Source: a bacterium | GTDB taxonomy: Bacteria > CAIJMQ01 > JAADFP01 | NCBI GenBank assembly: GCA_027021085.1 | Contig: JALUVB010000255.1 | Coordinates: 1-8,370 of the forward strand | Direction: 5' to 3' | DNA: 8,370 nucleotides | Shown here: piece by piece, positions 1 to 8,309 of the stretch | Layout: the number at the start of each line of letters is the position of its first letter | Numbering within the stretch: the first letter of the stretch is position 1 | Position numbers and translations under genes: made by a program | The notes under the pieces: model-generated | What the model saw: the letters and a program-made list of their open reading frames with translations, nothing else | What the model was told of the DNA's origin: nothing | Databases searched by the model: none

Positions 1-125
1 AAAACCGCTCCATAGAGGAGACCCTGAATCTGGGCTGGGAGCTCTTGACCATGCTGCCCACCTCCGAACTGCGCAGAATAAGGCCGGAGTTTGTGAAGAA
101 ATACCTCCCTACCGTCAAGCGGTAA
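1..125 (+). CDS. atpB: V/A-type ATP synthase subunit B, C-terminal end (5' partial)
   Basis: The frame starting at base 3 is open from the window edge to TAA at 123-125 and encodes about 40 residues. It begins [15 protein letters not shown] and continues through [14 protein letters not shown] to KKYLP. This is the conserved C-terminal helical tail of subunit B, the non-catalytic nucleotide-binding subunit of V/A-type (archaeal/vacuolar-type) ATP synthases, which alternates with subunit A in the soluble head of the membrane enzyme. The RSIEE(T/S)L..W.LL..LP..EL.RI pattern is what I recognise; only the tail is visible, so the nucleotide-binding region cannot be checked. In most operons subunit D follows B directly, but here about 500 bases of repeats follow. 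The gene is known as atpB or ntpB depending on the organism. Confidence 0.8.
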
Positions 126-170
126 TCGGATCTCCCGACACCTATATATATCGGATAGTTGCCAGTTCCC

Positions 171-192
171 TGTCCCGGCGCACGTCGGGACA
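171..192. repeat. Inverted repeat (hairpin) TGTCCCG...CGGGACA
   Basis: The arms TGTCCCG (171-177) and CGGGACA (186-192) are perfect complements around an eight-base centre that can pair further. No T-run follows, so it is not a standard terminator. Related GC-rich hairpins occur at 244-261, 569-586, 7787-7804 and 8152-8167, so it is probably one module of the repeat family. Confidence 0.6.
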
Positions 193-242
193 CCTATCCC
201 CCCATGTTAGGCTATGATCTAAAAGTTGTGAGTTGCCAGTTT

Positions 243-350
243 CTCCCGATGAACATCGGGACCAGTTCTGCCTATCCACCCCATGTTAGACTATAGACAT
301 CAGACTTTAGACATTAGACGGGAAAGACACATGATACGGGGGACCAACTC
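243..350 (+). repeat. Left copy of inverted long repeat block
   Basis: This 108-nt block matches the reverse complement of 7699-7805 with a single inserted C (in CTATCCACCCC here versus CTATCACCCC there) and no other difference that I can see. It starts with the palindrome TCCCGATGAACATCGGGA, passes through TAGAC words, and ends in a non-periodic anchor at about 319-350 containing GGGAAAGACACATG and GGGGGACCAACTC. Near-identity in non-coding DNA 7.4 kb apart implies recent copying or gene conversion. Confidence 0.9.
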
Positions 351-460
351 GCTATTTACTGTTCACTATTTACTATTTACTATCTCCCCTCACTACCCGC
401 TACTCACTACTATCTACTCCCTACTATTCACTATTCACTGCTTACTGTTCACTATCTATC
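351..460 (+). repeat. Heptad word array (TTYACTR / CTACT type)
   Basis: Seven-base words follow one another with an invariant ACT core, such as TTTACTG, TTCACTA, TTTACTA, then CTCACTA, CTCCCTA, and TTCACTG, CTTACTG, TTCACTA. The first base of each word recurs every seven positions with occasional slips. The same words appear on the opposite strand at 7606-7701 and 7862-7910. Confidence 0.8.
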
Positions 461-494
461 CTCCCAGTCTAATGTCTCAAGTCTATAGTCCAAG

Positions 495-529
495 AGTTGT
501 GAGTTGCGAGTTATTAGTTGCCAGTTCCG
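495..529 (+). repeat. AGTTNNN heptad array, five units
   Basis: Five back-to-back heptads with an invariant AGTT: AGTTGTG, AGTTGCG, AGTTATT, AGTTGCC, AGTTCCG. The invariant part is four bases and the variable part three. It is a third word family, beside the ACT and TAGAC families, with the same period of seven. Confidence 0.8.
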
Positions 530-622
530 CCTGTGCCTCCGCCTATATACGGGAGAATTGTGAGTTGCTCCCGATGAACATCGGGACCAGTTCTGCCTAT
601 CACCTCACACCTAGTTCTCCCA

Positions 623-652
623 TTGACACGCTGTCTATTTTTAAGCTATAAC
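623..652 (+). promoter_or_regulatory. σ70-type promoter carried at the repeat end, reading into the deaminase gene
   Basis: TTGACA at 623-628, an 18-nt spacer and TATAAC at 647-652 make a strong housekeeping promoter. The predicted start is near 659, about 16 nt before the ATG at 676. The promoter lies inside a 39-nt block (615-653) identical to the reverse complement of 7504-7542, so it is part of the repeat and not private to this gene. Confidence 0.75.
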
Positions 653-675
653 TTTGGTAGAGAAATTTAATATTT

Positions 676-1257
676 ATGAAATTGTTAGAGTTTAAATTTA
701 GTCTTCCGGGCTGGGTGGAGGGTTTCCTGCGGGAAAGAGGAAGTAAATTTTCCACTGTGGAGAAGCGTATGCGTTTTGTGGTGGATTTGGCACGGCGGAA
801 CGTGCAGAAGCGCTCAGGTGGCCCTTTTGCTGCCGGTATATTTGACGAAAAAGGAACCCTCATTGCTCCCGGAGTTAACATAGTTGTTGCCAGTAACTGC
901 TCTATTTTACATGCTGAAATAGTGGCAATAATACTGGCGCAGAAAAGGTTAGGTTGCTATGACATAGGAGCCGGGGATGAGAGCCACTATGAGTTGGTTA
1001 CCTCGACAGAGCCGTGTGCCATGTGCTTGGGAGCCATTCCCTGGTCGGGAATTTCCTGTGTAGTCTGCGGTGCACGGAGTGAAGATGCACAAAGTATTGG
1101 TTTTGACGAGGGCGCTAAGCCACCGGATTGGCAGCATGCAATGCAGAAGAGAGGAATTAAGGTGGTACAGGATGTTCTCCGCCCGGAAGCTATTTCAGTA
1201 TTAAAAGAATATGCTCGCGGGGGTGGCCCTATATACAATGCCGGAAAGAGGCGATAG
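676..1257 (+). CDS. Zinc-dependent nucleoside/nucleobase deaminase (CMP/dCMP or guanine deaminase-like)
   Basis: This 193-aa cytosolic protein has the cytidine-deaminase-fold signature: HAE at residues 79-81 (zinc-ligand His and catalytic Glu) and PCAMC at 113-117 (zinc ligands Cys114 and Cys117). GGPFAAGIFD (48-57) forms the substrate-binding strand, and IGFDEG (141-146) resembles the C-terminal region of guanine deaminases. The family hydrolytically deaminates purine or pyrimidine bases or nucleosides; the substrate cannot be read from sequence alone, though the GFD motif leans toward guanine. The N-terminus is about 30 residues longer than in B. subtilis guanine deaminase. A second start at 769 (GGAG at 759-762, 6-nt spacing) would give a 162-aa protein of typical length, while the 676 start lacks a good Shine-Dalgarno sequence. 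I keep 676 because residues 10-40 (LPGWVEGF...ERMRFV-like) look like a conserved extension. It is transcribed from the repeat-borne promoter and converges on the radical SAM gene. Confidence 0.85.
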   Translation: MKLLEFKFSLPGWVEGFLRERGSKFSTVEKRMRFVVDLARRNVQKRSGGPFAAGIFDEKGTLIAPGVNIVVASNCSILHAEIVAIILAQKRLGCYDIGAGDESHYELVTSTEPCAMCLGAIPWSGISCVVCGARSEDAQSIGFDEGAKPPDWQHAMQKRGIKVVQDVLRPEAISVLKEYARGGGPIYNAGKRR

Positions 1258-1374
1258 AACTCCCTTTTATCCCGCTGCTTCTCTTCCGGGGTATCTCCCC
1301 CAATATCCCATTCGCTGGAGAGCCTGAGACTACCGTCTGCCGACATTCAGCAAGCAACTATTAAGACTTGCCGG

Positions 1375-2910
1375 CTAAAATCCCGAAGCCACCTTATGAG
1401 ATTCCTCGCCCGCAAATTTCTCTAATACACCCTTATTTAAAATGCAGCCCGGGTCAGGTGCTTCCAGGTCCCCAAAGTAGGCATATGCTCTGGCCACACA
1501 ACCACCGCATACACTGAAGTACTTACCCCGGCAACCGCATCTATCCAGATGTTTCCGTCTATTTCTTATCTTTGCCATAATCGGCGAAGTATCCCAGACT
1601 TCAATGATATGCTCTCCCTTTATCTCCCCCTCTTTCTTTATGTTGCCTATTACAAGATTGGGCATAAATACGCAGGGAGTTATTGATCCGTCAGGTTGCA
1701 GTGAGAGATAGGCTCTTCCTGCGCCACATCCGCCGATGAGTTCTACCAGGCTTTCCAGTTTCTCGCTGTTTCCGGAGGAAAAGTGTCCCAGCACAGTTAA
1801 GTTTCCTTCTCCCCTTTCATACATTTGCCTGCAATATCTGCCGAACTGGGGGGCAGTGGATAAAAGGGTTTCTTTTCCATTCTGAAGGTCCCGGTAAAAT
1901 ATTTCAAAGAGTCTTTCTCTTTCATCGCAGGTCAAATCATTTACCATGTCGGCTCTCCCGCAGGGAATGTAGTTATAGCAGACAATCTTTCTTATGCCCA
2001 ATTCATCTCTCAGCTTGAGCATTTTGGGGATTTCATCCTGCAGGATGGCATTTTCTCGCGCCACGGTAAAGGATATGCAGGTTTTATCACCTTCCCCTGC
2101 CTTCACCAGGTTTTTTATTCCTCTTATTGTCCTTTCAAAAGCGCCTTTCACTCCCCGGAAAGTATCATGCACCTCCGGGCTGGCTCCGTCCAGACTCACC
2201 CCGTAGTAAGCAAACCCCATTTCTTTTAATCGCCAGGCTACTTCTTCTGTAATCAGCGTCCCGTTTGTATTTATAGACATATAAAGGCCATTTTCTTTTC
2301 CTATCCTGGCCAGTTCCCAGAACATGGGGTCCATCAGCGGCTCTCCCCCCGCAAAGGCAAAAGTCGGTATGTTTAATTTACATATTTCTTCCATGACTTT
2401 TACTTTCTCTTCCTTGCTGAGTTTGTTAGGTAGGCCCTTGGAGAGAACACCGGCATCTTCGTAACAATGTTTACATCTTAAATTGCATTTTGCCGTGGTG
2501 TTCCAGACCAGCATCAAGGGTTCGGCAAATACCATGGGCATGCTTACTCCGTATTTCTCTATGGTCTTTGCTACATTTAAAACTGCTCTTTTGAGTTTGG
2601 GGTTTTTTACTGCGGCAGGAAAACTCTCCTTCTCCAGGTTAAAGAGCCTTCTCAAATGCTCAAAGATTATGTAGGGGAGCACGGTTTCCGGGTCCTTAAA
2701 GACTCTCTCCAGGAGAGGGCGGTCATCTTTGCTGTATTTTTCTACCAGATGCTCCAGCCTGGTCTTCCCGTGGCCTTCCTCTTTCAGGAAATCCCCCACT
2801 CTTTTTCTTATAAATTCAGAGTTCAGGAGTGTGAATAAGCTGTTAGATTTAAACTGGGAGGAAAGCTTCACGGGATCAAAAGGAAAGCCGTTAAGATTCC
2901 ATAAACCCAT
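1375..2910 (-). CDS. Radical SAM/SPASM domain protein
   Basis: This is a 511-aa protein. The radical SAM motif CNLRCKHC gives Cys142, Cys146 and Cys149, which hold the SAM-binding 4Fe-4S cluster, and GGEP lies at 188-191. The C-terminal SPASM region carries Cys395, Cys413, Cys458, Cys460, Cys468, Cys471 and Cys489, ending in CGGCVARAY...GD...DPGC, which resembles AhbD/NirJ-type and peptide-modifying enzymes that bind two auxiliary 4Fe-4S clusters. About 130 residues of helical, charged N-terminal region precede the core. It should reductively cleave SAM to modify a peptide, protein or cofactor; I see no precursor peptide gene next to it, so the substrate is unknown. The start is ATG at 2910, set by AGGAGG at 2919-2924 with 8-nt spacing; a GTG at 2919 lies inside this site and is unlikely. 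It follows the transposase-derived gene by 15 nt, so the two are probably co-transcribed. Confidence 0.88.
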   Translation of the reverse strand: MGLWNLNGFPFDPVKLSSQFKSNSLFTLLNSEFIRKRVGDFLKEEGHGKTRLEHLVEKYSKDDRPLLERVFKDPETVLPYIIFEHLRRLFNLEKESFPAAVKNPKLKRAVLNVAKTIEKYGVSMPMVFAEPLMLVWNTTAKCNLRCKHCYEDAGVLSKGLPNKLSKEEKVKVMEEICKLNIPTFAFAGGEPLMDPMFWELARIGKENGLYMSINTNGTLITEEVAWRLKEMGFAYYGVSLDGASPEVHDTFRGVKGAFERTIRGIKNLVKAGEGDKTCISFTVARENAILQDEIPKMLKLRDELGIRKIVCYNYIPCGRADMVNDLTCDERERLFEIFYRDLQNGKETLLSTAPQFGRYCRQMYERGEGNLTVLGHFSSGNSEKLESLVELIGGCGAGRAYLSLQPDGSITPCVFMPNLVIGNIKKEGEIKGEHIIEVWDTSPIMAKIRNRRKHLDRCGCRGKYFSVCGGCVARAYAYFGDLEAPDPGCILNKGVLEKFAGEESHKVASGF

Positions 2911-2918
2911 TTTTCTCA

Positions 2919-2924
2919 CCTCCT
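2919..2924 (-). promoter_or_regulatory. Ribosome binding site fixing the radical SAM start
   Basis: AGGAGG on the minus strand lies 8 nt before ATG at 2910 and just after the TAA (2926-2928) of the upstream gene. The spacing suggests translational coupling and excludes the overlapping GTG at 2919 as start. Confidence 0.8.
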
Positions 2925-2925
2925 T

Positions 2926-3408
2926 TTAGTACTCAGGTTCAAAATCACCTTTTTTGCGCAGGTCCTTTAGACTCAGGTTTGCTTCCTTGAGAATGCGGCG
3001 TATGGTTTCGTGGCTTATTTCGAGTACAATCCGCTTTTTTTCCAGGTAATCCTTGAGACCGTGGAGCGTCCAATGGGTGGCGAAAACACCGAGCTTTCTG
3101 GGGGGCTGTCTTACAATGCTGAGTAATTTATCTTTGAAACTTTCATCAAATCTCTTTTTCAATCCTACCCTGGGAGCCTCTAAAAGAGAGCTCAACCCTT
3201 TCCGGTTAAACCGATGTATCCATTTCCTTAAATTGATGGGATGGAGATTCACTATGCGGGAGATTTCCGGTATCTTGTATTTATGTTCGCTGGAGAGAAG
3301 GATAATGCGGGCTCTTTTTCGGAGATGGTACTCCCCCTCTTTTAGGATCTTTTCAAGAATCTTTTTCTCTTCCAGGCTGGGTTTTCTGGCAAATACCAAC
3401 TTACCCAT
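2926..3408 (-). CDS. IS630-type transposase DNA-binding half (no DDE domain)
   Basis: This 160-aa protein matches the N-terminal part of IS630-family transposases. A first helix-turn-helix spans about residues 25-75 (ARIILLSSEH, IPEISRIVNLHPINLRKWIHRF, GLSSLLEAPRVG), and a second winged-helix-like region spans about 85-145 (WTLHGLKDYL, ISHETIRRIL). The full transposase has a DDE catalytic domain of roughly 170-200 more residues; here the protein stops at GDFEPEY, close to the usual junction between the two halves. The following DNA is the radical SAM ribosome binding site, so no catalytic remnant remains. I saw no terminal inverted repeats. It may be a remnant, or a transposase DNA-binding domain now used as a regulator. 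The intact frame, its own promoter and 15-nt coupling to the next gene favour retained expression; the regulatory role is inference. Confidence 0.75.
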   Translation of the reverse strand: MGKLVFARKPSLEEKKILEKILKEGEYHLRKRARIILLSSEHKYKIPEISRIVNLHPINLRKWIHRFNRKGLSSLLEAPRVGLKKRFDESFKDKLLSIVRQPPRKLGVFATHWTLHGLKDYLEKKRIVLEISHETIRRILKEANLSLKDLRKKGDFEPEY

Positions 3409-3417
3409 TTCTCCATT

Positions 3418-3445
3418 ATTATAATACTTTTTTTGAAAAAATCAA
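3418..3445 (-). promoter_or_regulatory. Promoter of the transposase-derived gene and radical SAM unit
   Basis: On the minus strand, TTGATT (3440-3445), a 16-nt spacer and a perfect TATAAT (3418-3423) precede the ATG at 3408 by only 9 nt. Transcription would start at or within a few bases of the start codon, giving a leaderless or nearly leaderless mRNA. The only Shine-Dalgarno-like bases, GGAG, sit 2 nt from the ATG. Confidence 0.5.
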
Positions 3446-3459
3446 TATGTTTTATGTGA

Positions 3460-3472
3460 AATTCCTGGAATT
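3460..3472. promoter_or_regulatory. 13-nt perfect palindrome in the divergent region
   Basis: AATTCCTGGAATT has 6-bp perfect arms around one central T. It lies 14 nt upstream of the minus-strand -35 and 34 nt upstream of the plus-strand -35, a place suited to an activator or a shared repressor. The protein that would bind it is unknown. Confidence 0.4.
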
Positions 3473-3506
3473 AGCGGAAAAATCCGGATAAATTTAGAAA
3501 ATTCTC

Positions 3507-3535
3507 TTGACAGATGTAAAGTTTTGGGTTAGAAT
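3507..3535 (+). promoter_or_regulatory. σ70-type promoter of the regulator-hybrid cluster protein operon
   Basis: TTGACA (3507-3512), a 17-nt spacer and TAGAAT (3530-3535) give a near-consensus promoter with a predicted start near 3542 and a leader of about 30 nt to the ATG at 3572. No other convincing promoter appears before 6678, so all five genes likely depend on it. Confidence 0.75.
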
Positions 3536-3538
3536 TAC

Positions 3539-3551
3539 TTAGGAGTCCTAA
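3539..3551. promoter_or_regulatory. Candidate operator of the MarR-type regulator
   Basis: TTAGGAGTCCTAA is a perfect palindrome with 6-bp arms and a one-base centre, beginning 3 nt after the -10 box and covering the predicted transcription start. MarR-family repressors commonly bind such dyads in their own promoters, so autorepression is the simplest reading. The binding itself is inferred. Confidence 0.55.
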
Positions 3552-3571
3552 ATAAATTAAGGGAATCAAAT

Positions 3572-4168
3572 ATGGAAATTGAAGAAAAGATAGTATCCGC
3601 CCTGGAGAAATTGACTCAGGTGAATCGTATTCTTCTCTGGGATGTCTCGAAGAGAGAGAACCTGAGCCCCATTCAGATTCAGTTTCTCCTGTACATCTCC
3701 AGGCATAAGGAAGAATCTTCCACGATAGGCAAACTGGCGGAAGAGTTTGGTTTGACTCCTGCTACGGTAAGCGAGGCGGTGAATTCGCTGGAGGAGAAGG
3801 GGCTGCTTTTGCGGAAGCAATCAAAGAAAGATGGGAGGGTTTTTGCCCTTACTCTCACTTTTGCCGGCAAGGAAGCAGTAAAAAAAATAGCTAACTGGTC
3901 AGATGCGTTGAAAAAGCATATAGAAAAACTTCCCTTGCAGGGGAAGGAGGTAACGTTAAAATTTCTTCTGGATCTCATAAAGAGTCTCTACGAGTCCGGA
4001 GTGATAAGCGTGGCCAGGTTGTGTTTTACCTGTGCAAACTTTGTCATGGATGCACGTCCAGAATCTTCCAAACCTTATTATTGCAAATTAACCAATATGG
4101 CTTTTTCAAATTCCGAGGTGAATGTAGATTGTTCAGGTTTCGTACCCAAAAAAAAGAAGGAGGGTTAA
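3572..4168 (+). CDS. MarR-family regulator with a C-terminal four-Cys cluster
   Basis: This 198-aa protein has a MarR winged helix at about residues 30-110: LSPIQIQFLLYI, IGKLAEEFGLTPATVSEAVNSLEEKGLL as the helix-turn-helix, and a wing with KKDGRVFALTLT. After a helical dimerisation region comes a tail with Cys151, Cys154, Cys171 and Cys187 (C-X2-C-X16-C-X15-C), which could hold a metal ion or an Fe-S cluster. Placed first in an operon with a hybrid cluster protein, it probably senses NO or redox state through this cluster and controls the operon; this is inference. AAGGGA at 3559-3564 is the ribosome binding site. The stop is 3 nt before the next start, and the next gene's AGGAGG lies inside its last codons, implying coupled translation. 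Confidence 0.85.
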   Translation: MEIEEKIVSALEKLTQVNRILLWDVSKRENLSPIQIQFLLYISRHKEESSTIGKLAEEFGLTPATVSEAVNSLEEKGLLLRKQSKKDGRVFALTLTFAGKEAVKKIANWSDALKKHIEKLPLQGKEVTLKFLLDLIKSLYESGVISVARLCFTCANFVMDARPESSKPYYCKLTNMAFSNSEVNVDCSGFVPKKKKEG

Positions 4169-4171
4169 GAA

Positions 4172-5473
4172 ATGGAAAGGTTGGAAATGTTTTGTTACCA
4201 GTGTTCACAAACCGTAAAAGGAGATGGCTGTACTCATGTGGGAGTATGTGGAAAGCAGCCGACAGTGGCCAGGCTGCAGGATAACCTTATTTTTTCTATT
4301 AAAGGTATCTCTGCCTATGCCTACCATGCCCGGGAGCTGGGAGCTACCGATCCGGAGGTGGATGCATTCTTCAGCCAGGGGATTTATTCCACCTTGACCA
4401 ATGTTAACTTTGATGCAGGAAGCTTCGTGAAGTTAGCTCTGGAATCAGGGAAGATAAACCTCAAGGTAATGAAACTGCTGAAAGATGCTCACATCAAGGC
4501 TTACGGTGAGCCCGAACCCACGGAAGTGCAGACGGGAACGCGCAAGGGCAAGGGAATTCTGGTTACCGGACACGGGTTAAAGGCACTGGAAGAATTGCTT
4601 AAGCAGACAGAAGGAACCGGCATAAATGTTTATACCCATTCTGAAATGCTGCCTGCACATGGATATCCAGGACTCAAGAAGTATAAGCACCTTGTGGGTA
4701 ATCTGGGACGTGCCTGGTACGACCAGAAAAGGTTATTCTCTGAGTATCCCGTGGCTATTTTAGCTACTTCTAACTGTGTGCTACTTCCGAAGGAAGAGTA
4801 CAAAGACAGGATATTTACCACAGGCGCGGCAGGACTTCCGGGAGTAAAGCACATTGAAGGATACGATTTCTCTCCGCTGATAGAGAAGGCTAAATCACTG
4901 CCGGATCTGGAAGAGAAGGAAGGGGAGGTAACACTTACTACGGGATTCTCAAAATCCGTGGTTCTTTCTTTGGCTGGTAAAATTAAGAGCCTGGTGGAGG
5001 CGGGGAAAATTAAACATTTTCTCCTGGTGGGCGGATGTGATGCTCCCACGCGAAAGGACGAGTATTACCGCGAGTTGGTTAAAATGCTTCCCCAGGATAC
5101 TGTTGTTTTGACCCTGGCCTGCGGAAAATTCAGGATAAACGACCTGGACCTGGGAGATATAGAGGGTATTCCCCGCTTGATTGACTTAGGGCAGTGCAAC
5201 GATGCCATTGTAGCAGTGGAAATCGCAGCTGCACTCTCTGACCTTTTTGGCTTGGAGATAAATGACCTGCCTCTTACCCTGGTGCTCATGTGGATGGAGC
5301 AGAAAGCAGTCTCTATTCTCTGGAGTCTCCTCTCACTGGGGATAAAGGGGATATACCTGGGTCCTATAGTTCCTGCCTGGGTCAACCAGGATATTCTTAA
5401 TGTTCTTGTGGAAGAGTATGATATTAAAATCATCGGTGACCCGCAGGAAGACATAAAAAACATCCTGGGGTGA
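4172..5473 (+). CDS. hcp: Hybrid cluster protein (hydroxylamine reductase), short class III-like form
   Basis: This 433-aa protein carries the N-terminal cluster motif Cys8, Cys11, Cys20, Cys26 (C-X2-C-X8-C-X5-C) and all the expected ligands of the 4Fe-2O-2S hybrid cluster: His134 (VTGHGL), Glu158 ([12 protein letters not shown]), Cys202, Cys289 (GGCDAP), Cys317 (LACGKF), Cys342 (LGQCNDA), Glu376 and Lys378 (MEQK). Class I proteins of sulfate reducers have about 550 residues; here the inter-cluster helical region is about 110 residues shorter, as in class III enzymes of thermophiles and archaea. The enzyme is cytoplasmic and reduces hydroxylamine in vitro; NO reductase and protein S-nitrosylation roles are reported for family members. 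AGGAGG at 4158-4163 with 8-nt spacing fixes the start at 4172 rather than the in-frame ATG at 4187. The next gene begins 19 nt after the stop. Confidence 0.95.
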
Positions 5474-5492
5474 AGAAGGAGGTGCATAGAAA

Positions 5493-6278
5493 GTGAAGAG
5501 AAAAATAATCAGGATTGACGAGGATAAGTGCAACGGGTGTGGACTCTGTATACCAGGCTGTCCTGAGGCTGCTTTGCAGATTGTAGATACGCCGAAAGGG
5601 AAGAAGGCAAGACTGGTGAAGGAAATATTCTGCGACGGGCTGGGTGCGTGCCTGGGCAAATGTCCCCAGGGTGCTATTTCCATAGAAGAGAGAGATGCTG
5701 CTCCCTACAACGAAGAAGAGACTATTGAGTGGATAAAGAAAAATGCTCCGGAACGATTGGAGGAGCATCTGCGCCATTTAAAAGAGCATGCTCAGGAACT
5801 ACCCCAGTTCCACCAGCATAAAGTGATGGGCGGGTGCCCGGGAGCCAGGGAAATCTCCTGGGAGGATAAGGGAGAGGCGACTGAGACAGAGAGGGCAGCA
5901 AGAGAAGATATCCCTTCCCAGCTCAGGCAGTGGCCAGTGCAGATTACCCTGGTTTCCCCCCATGCACCCTATTTCAAGAATGCCCATATTCTTATCTGTG
6001 CAGATTGTGTGCCTTTTGCTTATGCCAATTTTCACCGCGATTTCCTCAAAGGAAAGACGGTGCTTGTAGGGTGCCCCAAACTTGACGACCTGGAAGCCTA
6101 CATTGAAAAGTTTACGCAGGTTTTCAGCGTAGCTTCTCCGCAACGCGTAACTGTGCTGCATATGGAAGTGCCTTGCTGTTTTGGCCTGGTATATGGGGTA
6201 AAAGAGGCTTTAAAAAGGTCTGGCAAGGATATCCCTTTTGAAGAAATTACCATCAGCATTGATGGCAAGGTAATATGA
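5493..6278 (+). CDS. 4Fe-4S ferredoxin-domain protein with Cys-rich C-terminal domain
   Basis: This 261-aa protein starts at GTG (AGGAGG at 5477-5482, 10-nt spacing). The N-terminus is a two-cluster ferredoxin domain: C13-X2-C16-X2-C19-X3-C23-P, then C47-X5-C53-X3-C57-P in the sequence CDGLGACLGKCP, where the usual middle Cys of the second motif is missing. The charged linker (about 68-145) contains GGCPGA (Cys115). A C-terminal domain (about 146-261) has ICADC (169, 172), VGCPK (194) and PCC (228, 229), enough for further metal or thiol chemistry. I recognise this architecture from anaerobes but not a proven function. Position directly after hcp suggests it passes electrons to the hybrid cluster protein. 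Its ATG/TGA overlap with the next gene (6275-6278) shows tight coupling. Confidence 0.8.
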   Translation: MKRKIIRIDEDKCNGCGLCIPGCPEAALQIVDTPKGKKARLVKEIFCDGLGACLGKCPQGAISIEERDAAPYNEEETIEWIKKNAPERLEEHLRHLKEHAQELPQFHQHKVMGGCPGAREISWEDKGEATETERAAREDIPSQLRQWPVQITLVSPHAPYFKNAHILICADCVPFAYANFHRDFLKGKTVLVGCPKLDDLEAYIEKFTQVFSVASPQRVTVLHMEVPCCFGLVYGVKEALKRSGKDIPFEEITISIDGKVI

Positions 6279-6517
6279 AGTGTCCCGGTACAGATACGAG
6301 ATTTCTCAGGGTAGGGGTACATAAGTGTCCTAATTGTGGCTACGAGGTGGAAATATTTTCCGACGAGGTCAGAGTTAAATGCCCGAAATGTAAAAAGTAT
6401 GTGTACCGGGAAGAGCTTCCTTCCTGTATTGACTGGTGCAAGTATGCCAGGCAGTGTATAGGGGAAGAACGCTGGAAGGAATTGATGGATTTCAAAAAAC
6501 GGAAAAAGGAGGAGTAA
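6275..6517 (+). CDS. Small Cys-rich zinc-ribbon protein (CPGTDTRF motif)
   Basis: This 80-aa protein overlaps the previous gene by four bases (ATGA). It opens with KCPGTDTRF (Cys3), has a zinc ribbon made of CPNC (18, 21) and CPKC (36, 39), and ends with [12 protein letters not shown] (51, 55, 61) followed by a lysine-rich tail. The CPG.D.RF...CP.CG.E.EIF.DE pattern followed by C..WC.YA..C resembles a small Cys-rich module that I recall from other anaerobic bacteria, sometimes next to HD-domain phosphohydrolases. Here it stands alone. It probably binds one zinc and perhaps a second metal; its function is unknown. Context suggests an accessory or maturation role for the Fe-S proteins around it. 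Confidence 0.75.
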
Positions 6518-6519
6518 CA

Positions 6520-6678
6520 ATGGATAAATATGTATGTACGGTATGTGGATATATTTACAATCCTGAGGTAGGTGACCCTGATGCAGGTATTGATCCAGGC
6601 ACTCCTTTTGAGAAGTTGCCCGATGATTGGATTTGCCCTGAATGCGGAGCCGGGAAGGATGCCTTTGAGAAAATGTAG
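6520..6678 (+). CDS. Rubredoxin
   Basis: This 52-aa protein has the two rubredoxin iron motifs [14 protein letters not shown] (Cys6, Cys9) and [14 protein letters not shown] (Cys39, Cys42), plus the typical [13 protein letters not shown] core. It is a small cytoplasmic one-electron carrier with a single Fe(Cys)4 centre that serves rubrerythrin, superoxide reductase, flavodiiron proteins and similar enzymes. It starts 2 nt after the previous stop, with AGGAGG at 6507-6512 and 7-nt spacing; a longer in-frame reading from 6436 would run antiphase through the upstream gene and is not needed. As the last gene of the stress operon it is probably an electron donor, though none of its usual partners lies in the window. 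Confidence 0.97.
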
Positions 6679-6710
6679 TAAATGTTGACGCTATGTGCGA
6701 CTTTTTTGGA

Positions 6711-6803
6711 TGAGTAGTTAGTAGCGGGTAGCGAGGGGAACATTTTAGACTATAGACCATAGACTTTAGACTATAGACTGGGGAGCGGGCTGACCCGCCT
6801 GCT
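6711..6803. repeat. Short heptad repeat patch with hairpin
   Basis: The patch has GTAG words at about 6713-6735, then five exact heptads ending in TAGAC at 6744-6778 (TTTAGAC, TATAGAC, CATAGAC, TTTAGAC, TATAGAC), then a hairpin GCGGG (6785-6789), CTGA loop, CCCGC (6794-6798). It sits between the rubredoxin and winged-helix genes. The same words occur in the two large mosaics. The hairpin has no T-run, so its use as a terminator is uncertain. Confidence 0.75.
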
Positions 6804-6886
6804 TTCGAAGGGGAGGCAGGGTATTTTCTGGAGAGTCACCGCATTTGGATATTAGTGGGTATGTAAATAAATTAAGGAGGTGAAAC

Positions 6887-7069
6887 ATGGGAAACAAAGA
6901 AGAAGTGGTTCTGGAGGCCATGAAAAAGGAAGGGAAGCCTTTAAGACCCGGAGATATTGCCAAATTAACCGGGTTACCTTCTTCCGAGGTATCAAAGATT
7001 ATAAAGGAACTGAAAAAGACAGGTAAAGTTATCTCGCCAAAAAGATGTCATTATGCTCCCGCAGAGTAA
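6887..7069 (+). CDS. Small winged-helix/HTH protein
   Basis: This 60-aa protein is preceded by AAGGAGG at 6874-6880 with ideal spacing. It is essentially one winged helix: helix 1 EEVVLEAMKKEGKP (residues 5-18), then RPGDIAKLTGLPSSEVSKIIKELKKTGKVISP (20-51) as the helix-turn-helix and wing start, ending in KRCHYAPAE. Proteins of this size with a SPKRC.YAP ending are familiar from anaerobic bacteria as uncharacterised DNA-binding proteins. Cys54 is the only Cys, so it is not a cluster sensor on its own. It could be a regulator or a protein-binding wing. It is separated from the stress operon by repeats and converges on the cupin gene. Confidence 0.8.
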   Translation: MGNKEEVVLEAMKKEGKPLRPGDIAKLTGLPSSEVSKIIKELKKTGKVISPKRCHYAPAE

Positions 7070-7093
7070 ATAACAAGCTTTTAGCTGCTGTTT

Positions 7094-7118
7094 TTCCCGT
7101 AATGGCGGGGAGCGGGAA
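7094..7118. terminator. Weak hairpin between convergent genes
   Basis: TTCCCG (7094-7099) pairs with CGGGAA (7113-7118) around a 13-base loop between the ends of two convergent genes. A T-run precedes it on the plus strand rather than following it, so it is not a canonical intrinsic terminator for either gene. It may still act as an RNA end-stabilising stem. Confidence 0.25.
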
Positions 7119-7133
7119 GGGGTAATTTCTGCT

Positions 7134-7454
7134 TTAGCGCGATTTAATCATAACTAAGAGCATCTTAAATTTTTCTATGGCTTTTAGGGCATGGGGTTCA
7201 TTAGCAGGCATAATAATCATATCCCCCTTCTCCAGAAGATTGGGCTGGCTGGAAATTCTAATCTCTGCCTTTCCATCCAGTATATATACCATGGCATCAA
7301 ACGGAGCTGTATGTTCACTGAGTCCCTGTCCCTGGTCAAATGCGAATACAGTTACGGTTCCCGCGTCTTTTTCCAGTAAAGTTGCACTAACAATAGCTCC
7401 TTCTTGATAATCCACCACATCAACCAAACGTTTTACCTTAGCCGGCTGAAGCAT
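7134..7454 (-). CDS. Small cupin-domain protein
   Basis: This 106-aa protein is a single cupin β-barrel. The first motif region is GLSEHTAPFDAMVYILDGKAEI (44-65), with His48 and the family's usual G-rich turn; the second is GDMIIMPANEPHAL (77-90) with His88. A single His occupies the first motif where classic cupins have HXH, and Asp53 sits near the usual acidic position, so metal binding may be reduced. Such stand-alone cupins are common in anaerobes and have no settled function. AAGGAG (7461-7466) lies 6 nt before the ATG at 7454. Transcription should come from the repeat-borne promoter at 7505-7534, with a leader of about 44 nt. Confidence 0.85.
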   Translation of the reverse strand: MLQPAKVKRLVDVVDYQEGAIVSATLLEKDAGTVTVFAFDQGQGLSEHTAPFDAMVYILDGKAEIRISSQPNLLEKGDMIIMPANEPHALKAIEKFKMLLVMIKSR

Positions 7455-7504
7455 TTTTCTCTCCTTTCCTGGTTATTATTTAATCTACTTACTCTATCCA
7501 CTTA

Positions 7505-7534
7505 GTTATAGCTTAAAAATAGACAGCGTGTCAA
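7505..7534 (-). promoter_or_regulatory. σ70-type promoter carried at the repeat end, reading into the cupin gene
   Basis: On the minus strand TTGACA (7529-7534), an 18-nt spacer and TATAAC (7505-7510) form the same promoter as at 623-652. It is part of the identical 39-nt block 7504-7542. The expected start is near 7498. Confidence 0.75.
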
Positions 7535-7698
7535 TGGGAGAAGCCTGGAGTCCAGTAGCGGGTATTTTAGACCTTAGACCATAGACCTTAGTCTGTAGAC
7601 TGGGAAAATAGTGAACAGTAAACAGTGAATGGTGAATAGTAGGGAGTAGATAGTAGTGAGGGGAGATAGTAAATAGCAAATAGTGAACAGTGAATAGT

Positions 7699-7805
7699 GA
7701 GTTGGTCCCCCGTATCATGTGTCTTTCCCGTCTAATGTCTAAAGTCTGATGTCTATAGTCTAACATGGGGTGATAGGCAGAACTGGTCCCGATGTTCATC
7801 GGGAG
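7699..7805 (-). repeat. Right copy of inverted long repeat block
   Basis: These 107 nt are the reverse complement of 243-350 with one base fewer and no substitutions seen. Outside the block the heptad arrays diverge in word order although they use the same words, which suggests slippage in the arrays and conservation of the anchor. Confidence 0.9.
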
Positions 7806-7861
7806 GGACTCACAACTCTTGGACTTTAGACCATAGACCTTAGACTATAGACTGGGAGAAT

Positions 7862-7910
7862 AGTGAACAGTAAGCAGTAAACAGTGAATAGTAAACAGTA
7901 AGCAGTGAAC
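7862..7910 (+). repeat. Seven uninterrupted AGTRARY heptads
   Basis: Seven consecutive seven-base units fit AGTRARY with no exception: AGTGAAC occurs twice (first and last), AGTAAGC twice, AGTAAAC twice and AGTGAAT once. Only positions 4, 6 and 7 vary, all by transitions. This is the clearest stretch of the period in the window. Confidence 0.9.
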
Positions 7911-7955
7911 AGAGTGAGTAGCGGGTAGTGGGTAGTTAGTAGTGGAGGGGAATAG

Positions 7956-7975
7956 ATTCCTGCTTGCGCAGGAAT
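7956..7975. repeat. VIPAQAGI-type (dRS3-like) palindromic repeat
   Basis: ATTCCTGCTTGCGCAGGAAT has perfect 8-bp arms around TTGC and is followed by GACG. Its minus-strand reading VIPAQAGI is the well-known signature of a palindromic repeat scattered through many bacterial genomes, related in form to the neisserial dRS3 element. It is embedded in the heptad mosaic. Confidence 0.75.
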
Positions 7976-8049
7976 GACGTAGAGGGAGTAGCAAGTAAGT
8001 GAGAGAAGAGGCAGGATGCAAGATACAGGTGGATAGTGAACAGTAAATT

Positions 8050-8090
8050 GGTATCCTGGTGTCCTGGTAATCCTGGTATCTCGGTTTCCT
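8050..8090 (+). repeat. GGTATCCT octamer array
   Basis: Five units run head to tail: GGTATCCT, GGTGTCCT, GGTAATCCT (one extra base), GGTATCTC, GGTTTCCT. It is a fourth word type, with a period of eight rather than seven. Confidence 0.75.
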
Positions 8091-8151
8091 AGGAGCAAGC
8101 CTTATGGTTTCCTCAAGATTGCCGTATTTAAAAAAGGTGGAGGAGAGGTGC

Positions 8152-8167
8152 CCCGGCATGCGCCGGG
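8152..8167. repeat. GC-rich hairpin
   Basis: CCCGGC (8152-8157) pairs with GCCGGG (8162-8167) around ATGC. It resembles the other TCCCG/CGGGA hairpins of the mosaics and has no following T-run. The rest of 8099-8300 shows no gene. Confidence 0.5.
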
Positions 8168-8309
8168 ACCGATGGACACCGGGAGGAACTTGCAACTCTT
8201 ACAAAATGCAGGTGGAATGGTAAAGGTGAACGGTGATGGAAAATTTCTGCGCTACTTCTGATTAGCCTTCTCTACTGCAATAATCTTTCTTTCCCGTGTG
8301 ATATTAGTG

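What the first reader, a model, noticed from the sequence alone, without database searches (positions are those of the whole stretch)
615..7542. Repeat family that carries an identical promoter to two unrelated genes
A 39-nt block with a strong σ70 promoter (TTGACA, 18-nt spacer, TATAAC) is identical at 615-653 (plus) and 7504-7542 (minus). Each copy sits at the gene-proximal edge of a repeat mosaic and reads straight into the adjacent gene, a deaminase on one side and a cupin on the other. The flanking sequences beyond the block differ, so the promoter seems to have arrived with, or been homogenised by, the repeat. This would make the mosaics mobile or gene-converting regulatory cassettes placing many genes under one common promoter.
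Basis: partly seen in the sequence, partly recalled or inferred. Interest (0 to 1): 0.8.

Follow-up and report, generated by a model that had tools for sequence, protein, structure and literature searches.

The report
Inverted twin promoters flanking flipped segment
Two genes at opposite ends of a 7-kb stress-gene island share one duplicated, inward-facing promoter whose copies stay matched within each genome, and the island lies flipped in the only close relative available, which points to ordinary recombination between inverted repeats and not to a mobile promoter cassette.

Summary
A 39-nt block (TTGACA-18-TATAAC) is identical at 615-653 (+) and 7504-7542 (-), facing inward into a deaminase and a cupin gene. 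The block occurs only at these two sites in the 1.93-Mb genome (up to 3 mismatches), although the surrounding mosaic repeats give 111 matches, and those mosaics show no preference for gene starts.

What is there is an old inverted promoter pair. The sister species (same genus, JAADFP01, deposited as Caldisericota) has the same two promoters at the same two genes. The copies agree within each genome (0 and 2 differences in 31 nt) but differ between genomes (5-6). All four fully informative sites pair copies by genome and none by gene, whereas the gene-side leaders follow the gene. The roughly 6.9-kb segment between the blocks is inverted between the two species relative to the adjoining V-ATPase B gene, with the promoter blocks marking its ends.

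Best reading: the duplicated promoter with its repeat-rich flank served as a recombination site, inverting the segment and converting the copies, while each gene kept its promoter. Precedent: insertion-sequence inversion between terminal repeats. Shared regulation remains a rival. Promoter activity and recombination were not tested.

The parts
615..653 (+). Promoter block copy 1, -35 TTGACA 623-628, -10 TATAAC 647-652, reads into the deaminase gene
   Evidence: hexamers unchanged in all four copies of two species; transcription not tested
7504..7542 (-). Promoter block copy 2, -35 at 7534-7529, -10 at 7510-7505, reads into the cupin gene
654..7503 (.). Segment between the inverted promoter blocks; inverted in sister species G001 (contig C38) relative to the V-ATPase B flank
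3..125 (+). 3' end of the V-ATPase subunit B gene (rest on contig C80); anchors the orientation. Family named from own knowledge of its C-terminal sequence
130..614 (+). Left repeat mosaic (tandem 7-nt-like units, ATCGGGA-type palindromes, dispersed ~75-nt core)
   Evidence: 111 matches genome-wide; longest exact copies 72-75 nt
7543..8243 (-). Right repeat mosaic, partly the inverted complement of the left one (163 nt at 90%, 54 nt at 93%, 74 nt exact)
676..1257 (+). Cytidine/deoxycytidylate-type deaminase
   Evidence: PF00383 E=4.5e-16
7134..7454 (-). Small cupin-domain protein
   Evidence: PF07883 E=7.6e-10; 90% identical in G001
1375..2919 (-). Radical SAM/SPASM protein (passenger of the inverted segment)
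2926..3408 (-). IS630-type N-terminal HTH protein without a catalytic domain (160 aa)
3572..4168 (+). MarR-family regulator
4172..5473 (+). Hybrid-cluster protein (hydroxylamine reductase family)
   Evidence: TIGR01703 646.7 bits
5493..6678 (+). Ferredoxin-type protein, zinc-ribbon protein, rubredoxin

Best explanation
The two blocks are an old inverted duplication of one sigma-70-type promoter at the two ends of a ~6.9-kb gene island, already present in the ancestor of two species of this genus. SHOWN: the same pair exists at the same two genes in the sister species, the copies are more alike within a genome than across species, and the segment between them lies in opposite orientation in the two assemblies. 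INFERRED: homologous (RecA-type or short-homology) recombination between the inverted ends, the promoter blocks plus the inverted, partly matching mosaics, flipped the segment at least once and, with or without crossover, converted one promoter copy to the other. Because each crossover arm contains a complete inward-facing promoter, flipping leaves both genes with the same promoter, so the inversion is close to neutral and tolerated. The dispersed mosaics supply homology and turn over quickly, but they do not carry the promoter around the genome.
For: Only two copies in G000 and two diverged copies in G001, all at the same two genes. Distances 0/31 and 2/31 within a genome versus 5-6/31 between; 4 sites pair by genome and 0 by gene. 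The 5' leaders next to the block align between orthologues (16/22 and 37/50), so the genes and leaders are vertically inherited while the block is homogenised. Window 623-7535 aligns to G001:C38 7024-357 in reverse, while V-ATPase B 22-129 aligns forward to 1-108. The rest of V-ATPase B lies on G001:C33 and on G000:C80, and C80-C255-C256 overlap by exactly 127 nt. Exact repeats at the ends are at most 75 nt in G000 against the mosaic loci compared and at most 60 nt in G001 against the contigs held, both below 127, so a k=127 mis-join is unlikely. In G000 the left mosaic's best genome-wide match is the right mosaic, inverted (321 vs 258 bits). Precedent: inversion plus conversion through 23-bp terminal repeats holding a -35 box in Wolbachia IS elements (PMC3004938).
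Against: Only two genomes carry the pair, and no outgroup polarises the inversion. G001:C38 has just 108 nt of the flanking gene beyond its left mosaic, and its right flank is not assembled. In G001 the partner mosaic is only about the sixth best match. Four informative sites is a small number, and parallel selection on a shared regulator site could give the same pattern. The crossover could lie in the mosaics, with promoter conversion a separate event.
Confidence: 0.66

Rival explanations
1. Shared regulation: the blocks stay alike because both genes are controlled by one factor that reads the spacer/-35 region, and the sites co-evolve with that factor. The inversion is incidental.
For: All six variable positions lie in the spacer and the hexamers never change. 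GACAcgcTGTC in G000 is a short inverted repeat overlapping the -35. A MarR-type regulator is encoded between the two genes.
Against: The G000 inverted repeat is not kept in G001 (GACACATCATCTG). No third site exists in either genome. In G000 the identity extends 8 nt upstream of the -35 into mosaic sequence; in G001 the two copies also share a 21-nt mosaic stretch just upstream of the -35 (336-356 / 7026-7046).
Confidence: 0.17
2. Mobile or gene-converting promoter cassette carried by the mosaic family to many genes.
For: Both copies abut mosaics, and in G000 the identity includes 8 nt on the mosaic side.
Against: Two copies only, none in other relatives. Mosaics are not oriented to gene starts. 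The block is older than the present mosaics next to it, which differ between the species.
Confidence: 0.03
3. The blocks are terminal inverted repeats of a 6.9-kb transposon.
For: Perfect inverted ends; an IS630-type HTH protein inside.
Against: No catalytic transposase domain, no obvious target-site duplication outside the blocks (CACACCTAG / GCCTGGAG), no other copy in either genome, and the island sits beside the same gene in both species.
Confidence: 0.04
4. Assembly artefact: one of the two contigs is mis-joined in the mosaic, so there is no inversion.
For: Both contigs end in or near mosaics. G001 keeps only 108 nt of the flank, with 191 nt of V-ATPase B missing between C33 and C38.
Against: Exact repeats found there (at most 75 nt) are shorter than the 127-nt overlap length. 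The V-ATPase B 3' end is found once in G001. The concerted pattern of the promoters does not depend on the join.
Confidence: 0.1

Closest known systems
IS inversion by recombination between terminal inverted repeats (ISWpi1, Wolbachia; PMC3004938)
   Same: Short inverted repeats containing promoter elements, inversion in place relative to the flanks, repeats made identical by conversion, promoters kept in working position.
   Different: Here the segment is a 6.9-kb island of resident genes, not an IS. There is no transposase and no target duplication. Both ends carry a complete promoter for different genes.
Neisserial intergenic mosaic elements / dRS3 repeat arrays (PMC3898611)
   Same: Dispersed intergenic arrays built from short palindromes and repeat units, linked to local recombination; ATTCCTGCTTGCGCAGGAAT at 7956-7975 resembles the dRS3 layout (ATTCCC-N8-GGGAAT).
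   Different: Different sequences and units (many 7-nt-like tandem motifs); no phage integrase target shown; unrelated organism.
Invertible promoters / invertons of Bacteroidales (e.g. PMC8748976, abstract only)
   Same: Inverted repeats bounding an invertible segment near promoters.
   Different: There the promoter lies between the repeats and flipping switches expression. Here the promoters are the repeats, flipping should leave expression unchanged, and no invertase gene is in the window.
Gene conversion between duplicated genes such as tufA/tufB (own knowledge)
   Same: Concerted evolution of two copies in one genome.
   Different: The converted unit is a ~31-39-nt promoter, not a gene.

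Membership tests
Inverted-repeat-mediated inversion with conversion (ISWpi1-type process) | Segment in opposite orientation relative to the same flank in related genomes | tested here: met
   623-7535 reversed, 22-129 forward; for flanks on C33/C80 (left flank only)
Inverted-repeat-mediated inversion with conversion (ISWpi1-type process) | Inverted repeats at the segment ends | tested here: met
Inverted-repeat-mediated inversion with conversion (ISWpi1-type process) | Repeat copies homogenised within a genome | tested here: met
   (4 sites pair by genome, 0 by gene)
Insertion sequence / transposon | Transposase with catalytic domain inside the repeats | tested here: not met
   only the IS630 N-terminal HTH (160 aa)
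Insertion sequence / transposon | Multiple copies or target-site duplication | tested here: not met
   flanks of the blocks differ
Invertible promoter (inverton) | Promoter between the inverted repeats, switched by flipping | tested here: not met
   Promoters coincide with the repeats and face inward
Invertible promoter (inverton) | Both orientations coexist in a population | not testable with these tools
   No reads; G000 contig runs unbroken through both blocks, which suggests one main orientation
NIME-like repeat array | Dispersed intergenic mosaics of short repeat units and small palindromes | tested here: met
   (likeness of layout only, no sequence homology tested)
Sigma-70 promoter | TTGACA / TATAAT-like hexamers at 16-18 nt, conserved between species | tested here: met
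   P=0.037 that six changes all miss the hexamers
Sigma-70 promoter | Transcripts start just after the -10 | not testable with these tools
   needs 5'-end RNA data

The most novel reading that the evidence does not exclude
A promoter-bounded flip island: a duplicated promoter acts both as the start of transcription for two unrelated genes and as the preferred crossover site of a recurrently inverting stress-gene segment, with recombination keeping the promoters identical and thereby enforcing equal expression of the two genes.
Probability: 0.1. Interest if true: 0.55.

Novelty: new member of a known kind. Interest (0 to 1): 0.33.

Why it matters
It gives a small natural case in which regulatory sequences about 30-40 nt long evolve in concert and coincide with the ends of an inversion. 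It shows how promoters could be kept identical by recombination and not only by selection, and it warns that shared promoter sequence need not mean shared regulation or a mobile cassette.

Tried and rejected
Exact 29-nt core in GTDB genome contigs and viral contigs: no match. The wider cupin search (80 loci) found no promoter block outside the genus (1.26 Mb scanned; best non-genus hit 7 mismatches). Plasmid collection: only weak coding matches. Rfam: nothing. Generality of mosaic-mediated inversion: 20 stretches of mosaic-bearing G000 contigs against most of G001 gave collinear junctions (e.g. C31, C25, C33, C30) and no second inversion, so mosaics alone are not inversion hot spots in this comparison. 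An operator common to both species was looked for by eye and not found. Strong homogenisation of the mosaics themselves is seen in G000 but not in G001. The consensus promoter scan missed both blocks because TATAAC lacks the final T.

Full report
OBSERVATION. The 39-nt block is present, exact and inverted at 615-653 and 7504-7542. It contains TTGACA-18-TATAAC and faces inward into a cytidine/dCMP-type deaminase (PF00383) and a cupin (PF07883). Around it lie mosaics of short tandem motifs and small palindromes.

THE CASSETTE IDEA FAILS. The window is a complete contig (G000:C255) of a 1.93-Mb, 94%-complete genome. With up to three mismatches the block occurs only at these two places, and its 16-nt core only there too (at one mismatch). 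The left mosaic matches 111 places. In 40 mosaic loci the nearest gene end facing the mosaic is a 3' end 40 times and a 5' end 27 times (rough ORF-based calls), so there is no aim at start codons.

THE SISTER SPECIES. One genome of the same genus (G001; its contig C38 is JAADFP010000038.1, deposited as a Caldisericota MAG) has the whole island at 79-86% DNA identity. Both its deaminase and cupin genes carry TTGACACAKCATCTGTTTTTARGCTATAACT. Differences in the 31-nt block: 0 within G000, 2 within G001, 5-6 between species. Four variable sites pair the copies by genome, none by gene, and all six variable sites fall outside the hexamers (P=0.037). The leaders right after the block align by gene. 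The block has therefore evolved in concert while its neighbours have not.

THE INVERSION. In G000 the V-ATPase subunit B 3' end leads into the deaminase end; in G001 it leads into the cupin end. BLAST puts 22-129 forward on C38:1-108 and 623-7535 reversed on C38:7024-357, with the ends of the reversed match at the -35 boxes. Assembly support: C80, C255 and C256 overlap by exactly 127 nt, which places C255 between V-ATPase B and the gene that starts on C256 in G000. In G001 the V-ATPase B 3' end is found once, with the rest of the gene on C33. Exact repeats found at the ends are at most 75 nt (G000) and 60 nt (G001), below the 127-nt overlap. The weak points are the short 108-nt flank in G001, its unassembled right side, and the lack of an outgroup.

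MECHANISM. Recombination between inverted repeats inverts what lies between, and conversion equalises the repeats. The same outcome, with 23-bp repeats that include a -35 box, is documented for ISWpi1 in Wolbachia (PMC3004938). Here the repeats are complete promoters, so flipping should not change expression of the end genes. The mosaics add inverted homology (163 nt at 90%) and change quickly between species. In the parts of both genomes compared they do not cause other inversions. Whether the crossover lay in the promoter block or in the mosaic cannot be told.

RIVALS. Shared regulation with a co-evolving factor is the main one; it is weakened by the absence of a conserved operator or a third site. 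Transposon ends and promoter cassettes were tested and not met. Misassembly is possible but would not explain the concerted promoters.

VERDICT. A real pattern, best seen as concerted evolution of an inverted promoter pair linked to an inversion: a new example of a known process, moderately interesting.

Noticed in passing
window 3507-3551: Good promoter (TTGACA-17-TAGAAT) of the MarR-family gene followed by a palindrome TTAGGAgTCCTAA at 3539-3551, a likely autoregulatory operator.
   Followed up: no
window 4172-5473: Short hybrid-cluster protein (433 aa) whose main match starts at profile position 122 of TIGR01703, resembling the short class of these enzymes known from thermophiles (own knowledge).
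   Followed up: partly
window 7956-7975: Palindrome ATTCCTGCTTGCGCAGGAAT resembling the layout of neisserial dRS3 repeats; a similar CATTCCTGCGCAAGCAGGAATC motif lies in the G001 deaminase-side mosaic.
   Followed up: partly
window 6711-6800: A third small mosaic between rubredoxin and a 60-aa HTH gene; it falls in the gap between aligned blocks with G001.
   Followed up: no
window 2926-3408: Stand-alone IS630-type HTH protein, apparently co-transcribed with a radical SAM/SPASM gene and inside the block conserved in the sister species, possibly a domesticated regulator.
   Followed up: partly
window 277-350 and many loci in G000: Dispersed core of about 75 nt inside the mosaics with near-identical copies across the genome, of unknown origin; no Rfam match.
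   Followed up: partly
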